Origin: Larkinella rosea
Lineage (GTDB): Bacteria; Bacteroidota; Bacteroidia; Cytophagales; Spirosomataceae
NCBI RefSeq assembly: GCF_003858635.1
Contig: NZ_RQJO01000007.1
Coordinates: forward strand, 1,799,941-1,863,940
Length of the DNA stretch: 64,000 nucleotides
Direction of reading: 5' to 3'
A program made the translations under genes and the position numbers. Each line of letters opens with the position of its first letter. The stretch's first letter is position 1. This document shows, piece by piece, positions 43,970 to 61,299 of this stretch. The notes beneath the pieces are model-generated. The model was not told the origin of the DNA. It did not search any database and saw only the letters and a program-made list of their open reading frames with translations.

Positions 43970-44560
43970 TATGGTTTCCTGATAGGTATCATCCCACCTT
44001 TGTTGCGGTGTTACAAAACCAATCGACCGATGAGACTACTTCCTGATTGGGTATCCAAGTGCCATCTAGCCGCGCGGTCATCTGACTGGGTTTTGCCCCT
44101 GGCAACCCTGTTCGGGGGTATAATAGGATACACTGCGAGGCAAATCCAGCCACTGGCATAGCTGTGTACGGCTGGTAGTCTGTTGATACTGAGTCATGAG
44201 TGCTAATTTTTCCGGGGTCCGATGGGTGTTTTTTAGCAATTCACTTTTGACCTCCAGTTCGAGGGCCTGTTTAGCGACGATCCGTTTTAAACGCCCGTTT
44301 TCTTCTTCTAGCGTCCGCAGTTTGGGATCAATTCGTGGATACGAATCCCTCAGGCCTTCTTTGCCCTTACTCAAATATTTCTGCCGCCACTTCCTAAGCA
44401 GTGAGGGGAATAAATTGTACTTCCGGCAAATTTCGGAATGGCCATTTCGCAGGGATTCCTGAACGATGGAGTAACGGTCCTCAGGAGTGAAATTACGTCT
44501 TACTTTGCTCGTGATTTTCTGAATATAATGGACTAATCGCACCGGCAACCCGGCTGTTTT
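43970..44560 (-). mobile_element. IS3-family relic: orfA plus the start of orfB
   Basis: The frame 44548-44078 encodes an OrfA-type protein. A helix-turn-helix is present (NFTPEDRYSIVQESLRNG; SEICRKYNLFPSLLRKWRQK), followed by a leucine-zipper-like coiled coil (LEEENGRLKRIVAKQALELE). It then runs on into the start of OrfB (SRTQLCQWLDLPRSVSYY). A one-base deletion near 44085 breaks it; the next frame goes on as TWIPNQEVVSSVDW and ends near 43985. The DDE catalytic part is absent. This is a dead remnant. Confidence 0.8.
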
Positions 44561-47528: not shown

Positions 47529-48245
47529 TTAATTACAGTACCCCTCTGGGGTGCATACAGCTCCTCCGACGATGTCTATTTTCTCATTTTTCGTCTGCAC
47601 CCATTGCTCGTAGGCCGCGGCTAGTGCCTGAGCGAATACCTTGGGTTGTTGAGCACCGCTAACCGCCTGGGTTTGATTGAAGACAAAGAAGGGCACACCG
47701 GTGGCTCCCATTTGTCGTACCCGTTGGGCGTCTTGGCGAACCTTGTCTTTATACAAATCGGATTGTAGAACCTGCTTTACTACATCCGGTTGAAGTCCTG
47801 TCTCCGTGCTTAAGGTGAGTAAAGTTTGGTGGTCGCTCAGTAAGGCACCTTCGGTGAAATAGGCCCGGAAAAAGCGCTCTTCCAGATCATTGGTCAGGTT
47901 GTATTTTTTGGCCAATTGAATAAGCCGATGGGCATCCAGTGAATTGGTGACCTTCGCCTGATCCAGTCGGTAATCCAGGCCCGCATATTTGGCAGTTTGA
48001 ACCAATGTTTTATGAACCTGAATGGACCATTCCCGAGTTTGCCCCTTCAATTCGGCTACATAATCATAAAAGCTTTTGTTGGGTTGATACGTCAAGTCGG
48101 GGTTAAGCTGAAAGCTATGCCAGACAACCTCTACAGAGTCCTTGGCGGGAAATTCAGCGAGTGCTTTTTCGAAATTTCGCTTGCCGATATAACAAAAGGG
48201 ACACATGATGTCACTCCAGATATCGACTCTCATTTTTGCGTTCAT
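47529..48245 (-). CDS. DsbA-family FrnE-like oxidoreductase
   Basis: The 238-residue thioredoxin-fold protein lacks a signal peptide and carries the active site CPFCYIGKRNFEKAL at residues ~16-19. A helical insert and GVPFFVFNQTQAVSGAQ with the cis-Pro follow. This fits FrnE/2-hydroxychromene-2-carboxylate isomerase-like cytoplasmic oxidoreductases. ATG 48245 gives MNAKMRVDIWSDIMCPFC, the first strand; a longer start would run into the operator region. It is the first gene of the minus operon, divergent from HxlR. Confidence 0.87.
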   Translation of the reverse strand: MNAKMRVDIWSDIMCPFCYIGKRNFEKALAEFPAKDSVEVVWHSFQLNPDLTYQPNKSFYDYVAELKGQTREWSIQVHKTLVQTAKYAGLDYRLDQAKVTNSLDAHRLIQLAKKYNLTNDLEERFFRAYFTEGALLSDHQTLLTLSTETGLQPDVVKQVLQSDLYKDKVRQDAQRVRQMGATGVPFFVFNQTQAVSGAQQPKVFAQALAAAYEQWVQTKNEKIDIVGGAVCTPEGYCN

Positions 48246-48394
48246 GTTGGTTGTAATTTTGTGTTGAAAAACGGGTGGTCTCGACGGCTGACTAACGACT
48301 TTAAAGCTCAGGACTAGGCTAATCCAAATCTGAGGGTGTGTCATGCGCTAATTGGTAGGAATCGACCGTTTGTTTTTTTTACAAAAGTACCTAT

Positions 48395-48455
48395 ATTTGA
48401 TTACCAAAAGTTATCAGTTACCCGTAGGTAATCAATTACCTTTTGGTAATCAAAT
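48395..48455. promoter_or_regulatory. HxlR operator/promoter region with nested palindromes
   Basis: A perfect 16-base inverted repeat, ATTTGATTACCAAAAG (48395-48410) and CTTTTGGTAATCAAAT (48440-48455), flanks an inner GGTAATCAATTACC palindrome (48427-48440). The GGTAAT word thus occurs several times. The region lies just upstream of hxlR and in the leader of the divergent DsbA-like operon. Autoregulation and repression of the neighbour by HxlR is inferred. Confidence 0.75.
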
Positions 48456-48464
48456 AAGAAAGCT

Positions 48465-48809
48465 ATGCCGAATTACACAGATTGTTTAGCTGCTCTGACC
48501 CCTATTCGAGATGCGTTGGAAGTAGTCAACGGAAAATGGAAACTGTTGATATTGGTTTCCATTGGGGTCGGAAATCACCGGTTTCGGGAGATACAGCGCA
48601 GTATTCCCGATCTAAGCACGAAGGTGCTGGCGAAGGAGTTGAAAGACCTGGAAGAAAATGGATTGATCAAACGTACTGTTGAAGATGGCTACCCTGTTCT
48701 GATCACCTATACCACGCTGCCTTATGCGGAAACACTGGGGAGTGTGATCGAGGCTTTGAAGAACTGGGGCGTCCAACACCGCGAACATATCATGGGAGAC
48801 ATGTCCTAG
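48465..48809 (+). CDS. HxlR-family winged-helix transcriptional regulator
   Basis: The 114-residue MarR-like winged helix has the HxlR signature: PIRDALEVVNGKWKLLIL, HRFREIQRSIPDLSTKVLAKEL, and GLIKRTVEDGYPVLITYTLT-like wing (ITYTTLPYAETLGSVI). No cysteine is close to the N-terminus except in NYTDCLAAL, a position used for redox sensing in some HxlR proteins. It starts 9 bases past the palindromic operator and is divergent from the DsbA-like/DoxX/SDR operon, the likely target. Confidence 0.93.
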   Translation: MPNYTDCLAALTPIRDALEVVNGKWKLLILVSIGVGNHRFREIQRSIPDLSTKVLAKELKDLEENGLIKRTVEDGYPVLITYTTLPYAETLGSVIEALKNWGVQHREHIMGDMS

Positions 48810-48959
48810 CAATCACCTACCGCATTGGAAGGTAGTAAATACCTTAAAGTTGGAACCGGCCTGGCCATCATCAGACAGCTCTCTGTGCTTTATGTTCACT
48901 CTCAAAAACACTCCTTTCTGGAATTGCAATAGTATACTGGAGGATTTTTTAGGCAGCCA

Positions 48960-49258
48960 TTGAGTTTGTAAAAAAATGAGATTCACTTTGATGAGGGATC
49001 TGATAATTAAGCGTCGAATGTTTCCGCCGACGGTTGTACGGCACGGGCCGCCCCGCACCCCTCGATATATTCAAATGTAGCCAACCTCGCCTGGTGCCGT
49101 GTTTCAAAATTAATGTGATTGACCATCTCACACTTCAGCGTTTTGAAAAAGCTCTCAGCCACGGCGTTATCCCAGCAGTTACCCTTCCTGCTCATACTTT
49201 GTAAAACTTCTAGGCCCTTCAATTGATCCCGAAATTCGGCCAGTATAGTCTGGCTTAA
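48960..49258 (-). mobile_element. IS3-family orfB 3' relic, broken by a 16-nt insertion
   Basis: The minus strand encodes the end of an IS3 integrase: LQSMSRKGNCWDNAVAESFF then KTLKCEMVNHINFETRHQAR and FEYIEG. The frame then breaks; 16 extra bases (49040-49055) separate it from YNRRRKHSTLNYQIPHQ, which continues in another frame. Removing the 16 bases restores a normal EGWYNRRRKHS. The front of the gene is absent, and the relic abuts a truncated kinase gene at about 49258. Confidence 0.85.
49040..49055 (-). repeat. 16-nt GC-rich hairpin insertion, copy 1
   Basis: On the transposase strand the insert is CGGGGCGGCCCGTGCC, between GGGGTG and GTACAACC. It can fold as CGGG-GCGG-CCCG followed by TGCC. 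Excision restores the IS3 reading frame exactly. A near-identical insert is at 51215-51230. Confidence 0.8.
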
Positions 49259-49563
49259 ATAAATATCTCGGCCAATAATCCGGCCAGGACATAGCCCTTA
49301 TGCCAGCGAAGGAGACCATGGTCAGCGGCTAAGCGCTCCACCTGAGCTTCCTGGCTTTGCTGCTGCAATTGCTGCTGGAGCACATTGAGCATAAACGGGA
49401 CTTTGTTGACAAAATCCTCACGGCTTAAGCGGTTAACGCTTTTCAGGCCCGGATCGGCCTCACAGGCGATTCGCCAGTTGGCTAGCAGCGCTTGGCGCCG
49501 GGTAGCCAGAAAGGAAGCGAGTTGGCCTAGCGGAGCCGATTCTGAATTGGCAGTGAATATCAT
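49255..49563 (-). pseudogene. Truncated N-terminal sensor domain of a histidine kinase
   Basis: About 100 codons from ATG 49563 (MIFTANSESAPLGQLASFL). The helical stretch RRQALLANWRIACEADPGLK then LSREDFVNKVPFMLNVL and HGLLRWHKGYVLAGLLAEI is the N-terminal RsbR-like domain found ahead of sensor kinases in this lineage. The frame ends at the junction with the IS3 relic, and no PAS, HisKA or ATPase part remains. Confidence 0.6.
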
Positions 49564-50125
49564 GGTTGGGCTGGAAAAATTCCTACATCCGGCAGGAGCG
49601 GTTCGACCGGAGGAAGTGATCCCAATTGGGCAACCAGGCGCTAGGAACGTATACGCAAAGCCGTTATCCATTCACCTGAGGTAACGTTTGTTTAAGATAA
49701 TTGTTTAGGAAAAGTGTAGTATCCTACCGGTTTGGTTCAGACTAAGAGAGACCGGCTAGCCAAGCAAACGAATCTCCTTTCCCTCTCTGGCGGAACATGT
49801 AGCTGCCCAATACCAGGCCACTTGCGGTGGGCAGCTACATGTTCTGCGTCAAGCCAACAGGACGATTAAAAATTAGTTGGGGCACCTACCAGTTGCAAAA
49901 CAAAAACCGGTCGGGTAGAAACAGAGATATTCGGACTTTAGCAACGATAAAGCCGGAGACTATAAGGTTGGAAAACAACGAAAAACCGGCCGAGATTCTT
50001 TTTGTCGAGGGAAAACGATCCGATTGAAAGTAGATGGCAATGAAACGATTACACTAAAAATCACAGTTTTCAACGGCACGATCACTCCTGGCTTACACCA
50101 ATTCAGACTTATAACGAAACAACAA
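49564..50125. other. Intergenic stretch with a 17-base inverted repeat
   Basis: No gene is seen. A perfect hairpin, GAACATGTAGCTGCCCA (49793-49809) and TGGGCAGCTACATGTTC (49828-49844), lies in the middle with an 18-base loop. It has no T-run and could be an element scar or an mRNA structure. Confidence 0.6.
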
Positions 50126-50674
50126 ATGATTCTTTTCAAAAAGAACAAAACCAGGCGGTCTTTCTATAAATGTGTCAAAATAACACTCATGATATTTGGG
50201 GGGGCACTAAGCGCTCTGGGACAATCTAATTTTGCCAGCAAAACAATTGGCGTAGGGGTGGTAGTCGCCGACCTTGAACGCTCGCTGGACTTTTACGTCA
50301 ATGGCATCGGTATGGTCAAAACCGGCAGCTTTACCATCAATGAAGAGTTCGGCAAACGTTCCGGCCTGACCAATGGTGTAGCCACGAACGTAACCATACT
50401 GAAACTCGAAAACAGCCCTGATGCCACCGACTGGAAGCTGATGAGTTTGGGAGGCAAATCGGCGCATCCAAAGCCCAAACATATTCAGGACGATACAGGC
50501 ATGCAGTATATCACTATTCAGGTGAAGGCTCTGCAACCCATCATAGACCGGCTAACGAAACTGAAGGTGCCGTTTCTGGGTAGCACTCCTACACCCTTGA
50601 ATGCCAACGCGCACTTTGTTTTTGTGCAGGATCCCGACGGTACTTTCATCGAGTTAATTGGCCCGCTTCAATAA
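50126..50674 (+). CDS. Exported VOC-family (glyoxalase-fold) protein
   Basis: A 182-residue protein with one complete VOC domain: IGVGVVVADLERSLDFYVNGIG, NVTILKLENSPD, MQYITIQVKALQPIIDRL, and FVFVQDPDGTFIELIGPL, with the metal-site Glu near the end. Starting at ATG 50126 it has a basic N-terminus and a hydrophobic stretch (ITLMIFGGALSALGQ) typical of a signal peptide, unusual for this mostly cytoplasmic fold. ATG 50192 is an alternative. The substrate is unknown. It stands alone between decayed elements. Confidence 0.75.
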   Translation: MILFKKNKTRRSFYKCVKITLMIFGGALSALGQSNFASKTIGVGVVVADLERSLDFYVNGIGMVKTGSFTINEEFGKRSGLTNGVATNVTILKLENSPDATDWKLMSLGGKSAHPKPKHIQDDTGMQYITIQVKALQPIIDRLTKLKVPFLGSTPTPLNANAHFVFVQDPDGTFIELIGPLQ

Positions 50675-50821
50675 TCCTGAAAACTTGATTTTAACGGCGA
50701 CGCTCTTAGCCAAAGGCGGCTCCCGCTTATTCATGTTCTCGCTCTGAATGTTCAGATGAAAAACAAGCTCTTTCGATTTGTTGTACTTGTATATCCCTGA
50801 AACAGCCTGGCCGATTTTGAG
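50654..50821 (-). pseudogene. Possible 3' fragment of a decayed gene
   Basis: Fifty-five open codons after a TAG at 50822-50824: LKIGQAVSGIYKYNKSKELV then FHLNIQSENMNKREPPLAKS and a final LLKRAN. The composition looks coding and lysine-rich, but there is no start and the end overlaps the VOC gene by 21 bases on the other strand. It may be chance. Confidence 0.25.
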
Positions 50822-50969
50822 CTATTTGTATTGACAAACCCCATCTCATATTTTGTGCTTTTTGCTTGGAAATTTCCGCAAATAGGGTGATCACTATTCG
50901 TTTTTTTGAACCGATATCCTGATCTAAAAAAGCTCTATATTAAAGTTAAAAACCAGGGCGAGTTGACAA

Positions 50970-51724
50970 TTAAAGTATACGAATCATGGCCGAAGCCAAA
51001 TAAACAAACCCTATAAAGCTGATGACGGTTTTGTCATAGCGGGAAGCTACCCGCCGATATTGCTTAAGTTTGTTAAAATACCGCTCCACTTTATTGTGAT
51101 CTTTCTATAAATTCTCCTCAATTACACGCTCCTCTAAGCGGTTTTTCTTGGATGGTATCACGACATCGATCCCCGATTGTTGAAAGGTATTAATGAACGA
51201 ATCTGCATCGTAACGGCACCGGCCGCCCGGCTCGATCTGCGAATAAGCTACTCGTTTCATAATCAGCAACGAATACTTCCGCCTGGGTAATATCAGCCCG
51301 TTGGCCCACGGTTAATAATGATCCGCAGTGGATTACCCAGAGCATCCACCGTGGCATGAATTTTCGTCGTCCAACCTTCCACGGATGGCCTAAACATCCG
51401 CGACCGGGTTCGCTTTTTGGGGCCGGCTGCATGTTGGTGAGCCCGCACGATGGTCGAGTCAATCATAATCCAATCCAGATCTGGTTCCTGTAACTCGTTA
51501 AGAATCGTTTTCCAAACTCCCTTTTTAGCCCATCTCCGAAACCGCCGATAAACCGTGTTCCAGGGATCAAATCGCAGGGATAAATCTCGCCACGGCGCTC
51601 TACTGCGATTAATCCATAGTATCGCATTGATAAAGAGTCGATTATCGGCCGCATTTCGGCCCACATCGCCAACTTTTCCCACCAGTAAAGGAGCTATTGT
51701 GCCATTATTCGTCGGTAAGCTCAT
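50970..51724 (-). pseudogene. Broken IS5-family transposase
   Basis: The N-terminal part (NRLFINAILWINRSRAPWRD; RRFRRWAKKGVW; DLDWIMIDSTIVRAHQHAAG) contains the first catalytic Asp. A +1 insertion near 51303 breaks the frame before ADITQAEVFVADYETSSL. A 16-nt insertion (51215-51230) breaks it again between FADR and GYDADSF. A TAG replaces a Tyr codon in EENLYKDHN near 51110. The end reads GFVYLASAMIRIL. It cannot make a functional enzyme. Confidence 0.85.
51215..51230 (-). repeat. 16-nt GC-rich hairpin insertion, copy 2
   Basis: On the transposase strand the insert is CCGGGCGGCCGGTGCC, between GATCGAG and GTTACGATGC. It differs from copy 1 at two positions that would pair with each other in the CxGG-GCGG-CCxG stem (G/C versus C/G). 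Excision restores ADRGYDADSF. Confidence 0.8.
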
Positions 51725-51785
51725 AGCGTCTCATGGACCAAATTTGCAAGGCAGTAATAGATTTACCTAATTGTCAACACGCCCT

Positions 51786-51903
51786 ACAACCTTATCAGTA
51801 CACAACAAAATAAGAGGCTCATATTGGGTCAGGATATTGGTTCAGAAAATGCGTATCAATAATCACTTCTAGTCCCCGGTTTTCGCTATCGTTATTGAAT
51901 GCG
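51786..51903. repeat. 118-base repeat, inverted copy of 44596-44716
   Basis: Matches 44596-44716 in inverted orientation, differing mainly by small substitutions. It directly abuts the right end of the IS5 relic, which appears to have landed inside or next to this older element. Confidence 0.85.
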
Positions 51904-52137
51904 AAGGACAGCCATTGCAGCCATTCAGGTCCCAGGTGTGAATGAACAAAAACTACAACAGTCGCATGAGGAGGGAAATCGTCTTTCTAAATAATAAAAA
52001 TTGAGCTTATCTTCGTAACGGATTTGCCGCACCGGCAGTCCGGTCTAACTGTGATAATGCCCAATCCACGTTGCCGAAGATACGCTGCACCATTCCCTAA
52101 ACATATACTTTTTTTTATCGAATGACTATCATATGAC
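51904..52137. other. Region upstream of the LytTR regulator
   Basis: No gene is supported. A GCACCGGCAGTCCGG motif at 52029-52043 resembles the 16-nt hairpin element but cannot be shown to be an insertion. Promoter elements of the LytTR gene should lie in the last 100 bases; no clear consensus was seen. Confidence 0.4.
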
Positions 52138-52875
52138 ATGGACATAGCCGTGAAGTTGCTCATTGTGGAGGACGAAATGATTATTGCCGCCGATATCGCC
52201 CTTCAACTCAGCAAACTAGGCTATGAAGTGAGCGGGATAGTTCCTCGGGGCGAAGAAGCCATCCGACACATCGAAACGAACCGACCTGACCTGATTCTGC
52301 TCGATATCAGTCTTAAAGGCTCACTTGACGGTATCGAGACGGCCCATGCGATCCGCCAGCAATGGAACATTCCGATTATTTACGTCACGGCCAATACCGA
52401 CGAGGCCACCTTTGCTCGGGCCAAAAAAACCCGACCCTACGCCTACATTTCCAAGCCAATCCGGGCCATTGAATTACAACGGGCTATCGAATTGACCATC
52501 AGCCGCCTGGCCGACGAGCCTCCTGCCTCTGCCGACCCTGCCCCCGACGCGCCCTTCGTGCTCAATGACCGGATTTTTGTACGGCACCGCGAAAAGATCG
52601 TCAAGATTTTCATCGCCGATATTCTTTACGTGGAAGCCGACCGCAACTATTGCCACCTCTACACGGCCGACAAAGAATACCTGCTGACAACGACCCTGAA
52701 GGTGATGGAAGATAAACTCCCGGTCAACTTTTTTGTGCGGGTGCACCGCTCCTATCTGGCAAATCTGACGCAGGTCGATGAGGTAGGCGAAGGCCATATC
52801 GGAATCGGGGGTAAAACGATTCCGCTCAGCCACCTCCTGCGCGAGGCCCTGCTGAAACGAATCCAGACCATTTGA
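52138..52875 (+). CDS. LytTR-family response regulator
   Basis: A 245-residue regulator: receiver domain (about 1-122) with acidic pair IVEDE, the phosphorylated Asp in LILLDISLKG, T/S in IYVTANTD and Lys in AYISKPI; then a short Pro/Ala linker and a LytTR DNA-binding domain (about 145-245; ADILYVEADRNYCHLYT, FVRVHRSYLANL). The usual partner is a membrane sensor kinase; the nearest candidate is the propeller kinase 8.5 kb downstream. Its targets may include the small-protein cluster that follows. Confidence 0.92.
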   Translation: MDIAVKLLIVEDEMIIAADIALQLSKLGYEVSGIVPRGEEAIRHIETNRPDLILLDISLKGSLDGIETAHAIRQQWNIPIIYVTANTDEATFARAKKTRPYAYISKPIRAIELQRAIELTISRLADEPPASADPAPDAPFVLNDRIFVRHREKIVKIFIADILYVEADRNYCHLYTADKEYLLTTTLKVMEDKLPVNFFVRVHRSYLANLTQVDEVGEGHIGIGGKTIPLSHLLREALLKRIQTI

Positions 52876-53393
52876 GGCCTCCGGACAAAACCGGCATTAC
52901 CGTTCACACATCCGGTAAGAAAATACCCCCTTTCGGACAGTAAAAGGATGCGCTCGTCCGGGCGAACTTGGTTGGGAAATACGCTGGCGATAGTTTAGAT
53001 CCGTTATCAGCCAAATCGCTTTACCGGGCTGATTGGGCCGCTCCGTTTCAGACCACCACCGAACTATGTTTAACCATGTCGTTCCCGTTTGCCACTATTC
53101 ATTCGCCGGCTATTTTTTGCTTCCTGTGGATCTCCCCAACTGCCATCTTATAAGCCTACAGAGGCCTGCCGTGGCTACGATTACCGCTCATACGCACAAT
53201 CGCATCAGGGTAAGTGATACGCGCGGTTCAACACGGAAACCCCTCATCTGACGAATAGAATTGAGAACCGGTCACCTCCTTTCCGATTTGGCCTATTCGG
53301 CTGCCAGCTAATTCATTCTTCTTCCTCAACCAAGTCTGTTCACCTCCTCATCACCGGGCTATAAACGGCCCGGTGGTTTAAATCCCAGACTAT
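52876..53393. other. Intergenic stretch with no convincing gene
   Basis: Short overlapping frames at 52968-53251 lack any family signal, signal peptide or plausible start context. No strong hairpin or repeat was found. Confidence 0.45.
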
Positions 53394-60816: not shown

Positions 60817-61299
60817 ATGACAGCCAAATCCTCTACACGAATCAGGGCCGCCTTTGCGGTCCTGCTCCTGTTTGCCGCCGGTTGCAACGTGCCTGCAACG
60901 GAAAAACCCGCCACGGCCGAAGAATTGTCTCAGATGAACCGGGATTTTGCTGCGGCACTCAATGCCAGAGACGCGGTGGCGGCTGCGAATTGCTATGCGG
61001 ATGATGCAACGTTGTATCCGCCCAATGAGCCCGCCGTTACGGGCCGGGCAAACATTCTTAACTACTGGAAGGGTGCTATTGACGCGGGGGCCACCAATGT
61101 ATCCGTCAAAACGATTGCTACGGGCAGTGAGGGTGACTTGGGGTGGGAAACGGGTCAGTTCCAGATGGATATAAAAACGCCCGACGGGAAAGTCGTTGTC
61201 GATAAAGGCCGATACACCGAACTGCTCAAACGCAATACAGACGGGAAGTGGGTATCTACAATGGGTATGTGGAATGCCGATGCACCACCTGCTCCTTGA
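60817..61299 (+). CDS. NTF2-like (DUF4440) lipoprotein
   Basis: A 160-residue lipoprotein (AFAVLLLFAAGCNVPA) with one DUF4440 domain: MNRDFAAALNARDAVAAANCY, DDATLYPPNEPAVTGRANILN, GDLGWETGQFQ and DGKWVSTMGMWNAD. The signal region is nearly identical in sequence to those at 55558 and 57245. It is the last small gene before the sensor kinase. Confidence 0.87.
   Translation: MTAKSSTRIRAAFAVLLLFAAGCNVPATEKPATAEELSQMNRDFAAALNARDAVAAANCYADDATLYPPNEPAVTGRANILNYWKGAIDAGATNVSVKTIATGSEGDLGWETGQFQMDIKTPDGKVVVDKGRYTELLKRNTDGKWVSTMGMWNADAPPAP

What the first reader, a model, noticed from the sequence alone, without database searches (positions are those of the whole stretch)
49040..51230. Two near-identical 16-nt GC-rich hairpins inserted into unrelated transposase genes
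At 49040-49055 an IS3-family orfB is interrupted by CGGGGCGGCCCGTGCC. At 51215-51230 an IS5-family transposase is interrupted by CCGGGCGGCCGGTGCC. In each case removing exactly 16 bases restores the expected protein (EGWYNRRRK; ADRGYDADS). Both inserts lie on the same genomic strand and precede GT(T)AC. The only two differences (positions 2 and 11) are compensatory in a CxGG-GCGG-CCxG stem-loop followed by TGCC, so the structure seems to be conserved. This is seen in sequence. That it is a tiny mobile or templated element is inference; no such 16-nt element is known to me.
Basis: partly seen in the sequence, partly recalled or inferred. Interest (0 to 1): 0.75.

Follow-up and report, generated by a model that had tools for sequence, protein, structure and literature searches.

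The report
Sixteen-base mobile hairpin in bacteria
A family of 16-letter DNA inserts, recognisable by the shape they can fold into rather than by their letters, has landed in dead transposon genes and spacer DNA of related bacteria, and looks like one of the smallest mobile DNA elements known.

Summary
Both 16-mers are exact insertions: an IS3 relative lacks precisely these 16 bases, and intact IS5 relatives read straight across the second site. A third insert lies at 44538-44553. Between homologous copies in congeners, 43 of 112 indels of 4-60 nt are exactly 16 nt. They fall at 37 places; at 27 all eight pairs of one structure form and at 4 seven do (20,000 random windows gave 10 and 30). The structure is two interleaved 4-bp hairpins. 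Its outermost pair joins element base 11 to the target base before the insert (C-G or T-A; Fisher p=2e-9). Letters vary, pairing persists. Target: AC^ for 62 of 71 copies of the two commonest 16-mers. The commonest pair of 16-mers is in 5 of 5 sampled genomes of the window's family and 0 of 390 others of its class. Best reading: a non-autonomous mobile element, recognised by structure and moved in trans by an unidentified enzyme. Closest known kind: the 21-27-nt SDRs of cyanobacteria (recalled). Enzyme and intermediate are unknown; no cognate RAYT was found.

The parts
49040..49055 (+). Insert 1, element strand GGCACGGGCCGCCCCG, after ...GTAC (base 49039 = C, pairs with element base 11 = G); all 8 model pairs form
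   Evidence: homologue L344 lacks exactly these 16 nt; L343 (congener, 259 of 287 identical) shares them
51215..51230 (+). Insert 2, element strand GGCACCGGCCGCCCGG, after ...GTAAC; all 8 model pairs form
   Evidence: intact IS5 proteins read across the site
44538..44553 (+). Insert 3 (new), element strand CGCACCGGCAACCCGG, after ...CTAAT; 7 of 8 pairs form (1:10 is C-A; -1:11 is T-A)
   Evidence: L382 and L413, IS3 relatives in the same genome, each lack exactly 16 nt here
48960..49230 (-). IS3-family orfB remnant that holds insert 1
   Evidence: rve_2, rve_3
51293..51724 (-). IS5-family transposase remnant (N-terminal reading frame); the remnant runs on to about 51100 and holds insert 2
   Evidence: DUF4096
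44078..44548 (-). IS3-type reading frame just downstream of insert 3
   Evidence: aligned to L382 and L413, not scanned with a family library
52028..52043 (+). Possible decayed copy CGCACCGGCAGTCCGG (7 of 8 pairs); no empty homologue found
   Evidence: also present in congener locus L374, 82.8% identical over 453 bp, so not polymorphic there

Best explanation
The 16-mers are copies of a very small non-autonomous mobile DNA element. Shown: it inserts as exactly 16 nt without target duplication, mostly after A-C (or A-T), in either orientation; its letters vary but two interleaved helices persist: helix 1 = bases -1,1,2,3 with 8,9,10,11, helix 2 = bases 5,6,7,8 with 13,14,15,16 (base -1 is the last target base; base 8 is shared, so the helices are alternatives or a pseudoknot). 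Inferred: an enzyme acting in trans recognises the folded single strand (or cruciform), not the letters, joins it after a pyrimidine that pairs with base 11, and so either chooses or copies the target base. Landing sites that survive are neutral ones: dead transposon genes, spacers, other palindromes. Not shown: the enzyme, the nucleic acid intermediate, whether movement is copy-out or cut-out, and any use to the host. Odds by step: real mobile insertions about 0.93; structure is what is recognised about 0.8; base 11 pairs with the target base during insertion about 0.5; single-strand DNA recombinase rather than an RNA route about 0.45.
For: Indel lengths between homologous copies: 43 of 112 are 16 nt, the next commonest length (4 nt) has 15. 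The 43 rows are 37 places; 27 form 8 of 8 pairs, 4 form 7 of 8, against 10 and 30 of 20,000 random windows. Of 16 places whose insert does not match the motif I had searched with, 9 form 8 and 2 form 7 pairs. Clean polymorphisms: L220 vs window 91.7% identical overall, L412 vs L055 91.7% (both in this genome), L408 vs L406 89.4% (same genome; L406 is an uninterrupted 261-aa orfB), L279 vs L385 95.5%, L284 vs L385 89.2%. Covariation with those columns free: bases 6 and 15 complementary in 139 of 149; 1:10 is C-G 77, G-C 33, T-A 5, A-T 4 of 149; -1 by 11 C-G 82, T-A 9, C-A 1, T-G 3, Fisher p 1.8e-9. One insert swaps pair 2:9 as well (GCCACGGGGCGCCCCG). Target AC in 62 of 71 copies of the two commonest 16-mers, background AC 5.7%. 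31 motif matches in this genome, 0 reversed.
Against: No live movement was seen and no enzyme found. Six of 37 places form only 3 or 4 pairs. Loci were mostly fetched because they held the motif, so densities and indel counts are enriched by choice. Folding energies of six examples are not better than shuffles (z 0.25 to -0.77). In copies embedded in one palindrome (ACGGAT^...TTCAGTCCGT) base 11 is C, T or A with T before it, so the -1:11 pair often fails there (T-C 4, T-T 1 of 105). No replication-strand bias (7 versus 6), which lagging-strand single-strand transposition would lead one to expect. 44 of 153 sites have an opposite-strand partner within 400 bp, so for some copies the moving unit could be a pair.
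Confidence: 0.6

Rival explanations
1. It is a REP-like element moved by a RAYT/TnpAREP (Y1 HUH) enzyme: bases 1-4 (NGCR) are the guide tetranucleotide 5' of hairpin 2, and the target AC^ is chosen as IS608 chooses TTAC^.
For: Y1_Tnp matches in 9 of 9 congeneric genomes; insertion after AC without duplication resembles IS608, which inserts 3' of TTAC by guide pairing (passages of PMC5934647); TnpAREP can act on a 5-bp perfect stem with a tetranucleotide (passages of PMC8266576).
Against: 0 exact elements in the 20 fetched Y1 loci (of 28 matches), 66 kb; by eye some of these loci carry other palindromes (L356, L358). No strand bias. Bases 1-4 pair inside the element rather than with the target. 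REP singlets are held to be immobile (passages of PMC3116915), whereas here single 16-mers insert.
Confidence: 0.25
2. The insert is made by fold-back DNA synthesis: a 3' end at the target is extended from a short seed and snaps back, so base 11 is copied from the target base and the helices are by-products of copying, not recognised features.
For: Base 11 tracks the target base in several sequence subfamilies (GGCACCGG, GGCACGGG, GGCTCGGG, CGCACGGG, CGCTTCGG each occur with A11 after T).
Against: The same 16 letters recur at tens of unrelated sites (CGCACGGGCGGCCCCG 38, CGCGCGGGCGGCCCCG 33 of 156 non-redundant sites), which calls for a copied master; base 12 does not follow base -2.
Confidence: 0.12
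3. It moves through an RNA intermediate, the route proposed for the cyanobacterial SDRs.
For: Structure conserved over letters, nested insertions and 7-nt periodic surroundings parallel the SDRs (SDR account recalled; flank periodicity).
Against: No reverse transcriptase link was looked for; inserts occur on either strand and in spacer DNA not known to be transcribed.
Confidence: 0.15
4. A host or rival-element weapon: the inserts are placed in transposon genes to silence them.
For: 4 of 10 rve-type loci in this genome hold 7 exact copies; G002:C5 has 7 copies in about 1.5 kb of transposase remnant; 36 exact copies in 201 kb of transposon-rich contigs against 2 in 400 kb of spaced chromosome samples.
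Against: The 201 kb were chosen because they held copies. Dead transposons and spacers are simply where inserts can survive, and many copies are in spacers.
Confidence: 0.08
5. It is the footprint left when a larger element excises.
For: Constant 16-nt length and no target duplication.
Against: No large element split between the two halves was noticed, though no dedicated search was made; a footprint does not explain compensatory changes across many letter versions.
Confidence: 0.04
6. Chance, native transposase sequence, or an assembly artefact.
For: In high-GC genomes the descriptor is met by chance (41 of 117 loci from an unselective scan).
Against: 9 of 9 congeneric genomes match, 0 of 390 outside the family, intact relatives lack the bases, the same insert is inherited in two species.
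Confidence: 0.01

Closest known systems
SDR elements (small dispersed repeats) of Nostoc and relatives, Elhai et al. 2008
   Same: Very short, structure conserved by compensatory change across unlike sequences, lie in heptameric repeats and minitransposons, nested insertions, no partner enzyme known (recalled from the abstract; the paper is not held). Precise insertion of SDR5 between bases 3 and 4 of HIP1 is stated in a passage of PMC4390886.
   Different: SDRs are 21-27 nt (recalled) and cyanobacterial. These are 16 nt, in Cytophagales, with two interleaved helices, one of which includes a target base. SDR sequences were not compared.
REP sequences and REPINs with RAYT/TnpAREP
   Same: Short GC-rich palindromes in high copy, some as inverted pairs.
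   Different: Single 16-mers insert here; no RAYT neighbour; no GTAG tag; pairing of bases 1-3 with the loop of hairpin 2; found inside genes as well as in spacers.
IS200/IS605 insertion sequences (IS608)
   Same: Insertion without duplication 3' of a short target ending in AC; hairpins; base pairing between element and target.
   Different: No transposase inside; 16 nt is too short for separate left and right ends; no strand bias seen.
GC clusters of yeast mitochondrial DNA (GC42)
   Same: Tiny GC-rich palindromic mobile DNA conserved in structure (passages of PMC4478555).
   Different: 42 nt, with an AG target nucleotide pair duplicated, in mitochondria.

Membership tests
SDR-like very small mobile repeats | Dispersed copies under about 30 nt with occupied and empty sites | tested here: met
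SDR-like very small mobile repeats | Shared structure upheld by compensatory changes | tested here: met
SDR-like very small mobile repeats | Lies in heptameric tandem repeats | tested here: met
   7-nt autocorrelation of flanks 0.367 versus 0.273 in control sites; at least 0.5 in 10 of 70 versus 6 of 400. The other element versions (83 sites) show no such peak (0.263)
SDR-like very small mobile repeats | Sequence homology to a named SDR family | not tested
   SDR sequences not available
REP/REPIN with RAYT | Copies flank a RAYT gene | tested here: not met
   0 exact elements in 20 of 28 Y1 loci
REP/REPIN with RAYT | Mobile unit is an inverted pair | tested here: not met
   109 of 153 sites have no exact opposite-strand partner within 400 bp; single copies are what is gained in transposase genes
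IS200/IS605 | Insertion 3' of a fixed tetranucleotide | tested here: inconclusive
   only the last two target bases are strongly preferred (AC 62 of 71)
IS200/IS605 | Strand-specific, single-stranded transposition | tested here: inconclusive
   7 versus 6 by local GC skew, small sample
MITE | Terminal inverted repeats and target duplication | tested here: not met
   no duplication at the five clean polymorphisms; no terminal inverted repeat in the 16-mer

The most novel reading that the evidence does not exclude
The smallest transposable unit known: a 16-nt DNA that carries no code and little fixed sequence, moved as a single copy by an unknown enzyme that reads an interleaved double hairpin, with base 11 acting as a one-base guide (or as a one-base copy) of the target.
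Probability: 0.45. Interest if true: 0.9.

Novelty: new variant of a known kind. Interest (0 to 1): 0.78.

Why it matters
If right, mobile DNA can be cut down to 16 bases recognised by shape alone. The family gives clean occupied and empty sites in culturable bacteria, so the long-open question of how very small repeats such as the SDRs move becomes testable. The pairing of an element base with the target base is a specific, falsifiable clue to the chemistry. It also warns annotators that many frameshifts in transposon genes of these bacteria are one recurrent event.

Tried and rejected
Chance in the window: alone is not decisive (5 of 100 shuffles). Relaxed motif with 3 mismatches was too noisy (286 and 283 matches versus 167 and 221 reversed).

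Only two of the loci that I looked at were useful (Emticicia agri MAG L200, Runella aurantiaca L183). A third, Hymenobacter L094, does not fit the descriptor.

Viral scan: one match, in 67% GC sequence, taken as chance.

RAYT link: none found. Rfam: no family over 48000-53000 of the window. Folding energy: no signal. Strand bias: none. Literature: searches listed nothing on such an element in Spirosoma or Larkinella or on a 16-bp hairpin insert; the searches cover open-licence papers only. My first count of distinct indel places used a faulty motif and over-merged; one search replaces it.

The genus is not named by the tools; Spirosoma or Larkinella is a guess from genome size and kin.
Full report
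What was claimed.

The observation. Both are where stated. For site 1 an IS3 relative in a congener, L344, aligns across the site with exactly 16 nt missing (GGTTGTAC^CA, 161 of 229 identical), and a closer copy in another congener, L343, 259 of 287 identical, shares the insert. For site 2 intact IS5 proteins from Rhizobium and Leptolyngbya plasmids read VLADKAYDS and VLADKGYDAD where the window's two frames give ADR-G and YDAD on either side of the insert. The window holds a third insert at 44538-44553, for which two IS3 relatives in the same genome each lack exactly 16 nt. It forms seven of the eight pairs described below.

One closely related pair is especially clear. The congener copy L343/L220 differs from the window's IS3 by one further 16-nt insert of quite other letters, CGCTTCGGCGATCCGA, with near-identical sequence on both sides. 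It fits the same fold.

A family, not a pair. The own genome (8.17 Mb, 18 contigs) has 31 matches to GCRCGGGCNNCCCCG and 0 to the reversed pattern. Nine of nine held genomes of the genus match the motif SGCRCGGGCNNCCCCG, with 1 to 28 matches each; the reversed pattern matched once in two of them. In 395 genomes drawn from the class, CGCRCGGGCGGCCCCG occurs in 5, which are all five sampled members of the window's family, and in none of the other 390; one reversed-control match was seen. Outside that sample, a Runella aurantiaca contig has one copy, and an Emticicia agri MAG has two copies 61 bp apart whose flanking frames spell an IS3 orfB in three successive frames, as two 16-nt inserts would give. 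NCBI places Emticicia in Leadbetterellaceae, order Cytophagales.

Architecture. Number the element 1 to 16 and the target base before it -1. Two helices recur: helix 1 pairs -1,1,2,3 with 11,10,9,8; helix 2 pairs 5,6,7,8 with 16,15,14,13. Each is a 4-bp stem with a 4-nt loop. They overlap at base 8, so they are alternatives or a small pseudoknot. The 17-nt unit keeps the same architecture when read on the other strand.

The strongest test compares homologous copies and asks only for indel length. Of 112 indels of 4-60 nt, 43 are 16 nt; 15 nt has 6, 17 nt has 4, and the next commonest length, 4 nt, has 15. These 43 rows are 37 places, of which 27 form all eight pairs, 4 form seven and 6 form only three or four. 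The same scoring of 20,000 random windows gave 10 and 30. The loci were mostly fetched because they hold the motif. So the fair subset is the 16 places whose insert does not match the searched motif: 9 form eight pairs, 2 form seven, 5 form three or four. An earlier run on less DNA gave 17 of 38 indels at 16 nt.

Covariation with the columns left free: bases 6 and 15 are complementary at 139 of 149 sites (G-C 87, C-G 52); bases 1 and 10 are C-G 77, G-C 33, T-A 5, A-T 4 of 149; for the target base and base 11, C-G 82, T-A 9, T-C 4, T-G 3, G-G 3, and one each of G-C, T-T, C-A, C-T of 105. The C/T by G/A table has Fisher p 1.8e-9. One polymorphic insert swaps pair 2:9 too (GCCACGGGGCGCCCCG). With letters fixed only at the GC core, 158 exact sites against 2 for a re-paired control were found in 742 kb. 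With no letter fixed, 402 against 56 and 68 were found, the 402 counting many sites on both strands. Of 156 non-redundant core sites there are 36 distinct 16-mers, at least one of them a likely chance match. Folding energies are not better than shuffles, so the case rests on covariation and not on stability.

Target. For the two commonest 16-mers, -2 and -1 are AC in 62 of 71, CC 4, TC 3, AT 1, GC 1; +1 is T in 52 of 71. AC makes up 5.7% of dinucleotides in sampled chromosome. No duplication is seen at the clean polymorphisms.

Where they land. By reading contexts: IS3 and IS5 genes and an IS110-like gene (the last named by eye from its reading frame), AT-rich spacers with near-7-nt repeats, and the loop edges of other palindromes, among them one with the sequence ACGGAC^TTTAGTCCGT and one built on CCCCCTTTAGGGGG. 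The flanks of the two commonest 16-mers show a 7-nt autocorrelation of 0.367 against 0.273 in control AC^T sites; other versions show none (0.263). In this genome 4 of 10 rve-type loci hold 7 exact copies. In 201 kb of transposon-rich contigs, picked because they held copies, there are 36 exact copies, against 2 in 400 kb of regularly spaced chromosome samples; re-paired controls gave 0 in both. Dead transposons and spacers are where inserts can survive, so this does not show targeting.

How it may work. Shown: gain of exactly 16 nt, target preference, structural constraint, link of base 11 to the target base. Inferred: a trans-acting enzyme that recognises the fold and joins it after a pyrimidine. 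Once the element sits in a target, helix 1 gains a pair from the target base; in the free 16-mer only helix 2 was predicted, while in context helix 1 was predicted for the three standard copies. This suggests, but does not show, a switch between a free and an inserted state. Base 11 may be a one-base guide or a one-base copy of the target; both fit the data. A Y1/RAYT enzyme is the obvious suspect because IS608 inserts 3' of TTAC by base pairing (passages of PMC5934647). But no exact copy lies in 20 fetched Y1 loci of 28 matches, there is no strand bias in a small sample (7 versus 6), and bases 1-3 pair within the element.

Known kinds. The nearest are the SDRs of cyanobacteria (abstract recalled; paper not held; one citing passage read in PMC4390886). 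REPs and REPINs (passages of PMC3116915 and PMC8266576) and yeast GC clusters (passages of PMC4478555) are more distant. I file it as a new variant of the very-small-mobile-repeat kind. It is shorter, in another phylum, and has interleaved helices that include a target base.

Limits. Sampling follows the motif; independence of sites is approximate; orthologous and paralogous copies are mixed; no movement was observed; the enzyme is unknown.

Noticed in passing
L046, L050, L059, L083, L088 around position 1500: Spacers of this genus carry AT-rich near-7-nt tandem repeats (TTAACTC, AATGAAC, ATTCACTC types) in which the commonest element versions often sit.
   Followed up: partly
L260, L291, L294, L303, L318, L322 around position 1500: Another palindromic repeat family (CCCCCTTTAGGGGG with AAGCCC before it), often in inverted pairs, in G005 and G008; the 16-mer sits inside its 5' arm in many copies.
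   Followed up: partly
L252, L285, L300, L304, L313 around position 1500: A third palindrome with TTGCAAC or TTACAAC at its loop, with the 16-mer at the loop edge.
   Followed up: no
L271, L328, L332, L334, L339 (starts of contigs of G008): Several contigs begin 26-35 bases before an element, as if assembly broke at these inverted pairs.
   Followed up: no
L358 and L363: Y1 transposase genes lie near repeats of a different kind (CGCGTTAGCGACCCAA), probably their own palindromes.
   Followed up: no
L048, L056, L215, L241, L279, L284: One spot in IS3 orfA (YNW-KKYGGL region) holds inserts in several copies, in both orientations and one base apart: a possible hot spot.
   Followed up: no
window 52028-52043 and 60843-60858: Two further sequences that form 7 of 8 pairs; insertion not shown.
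   Followed up: partly
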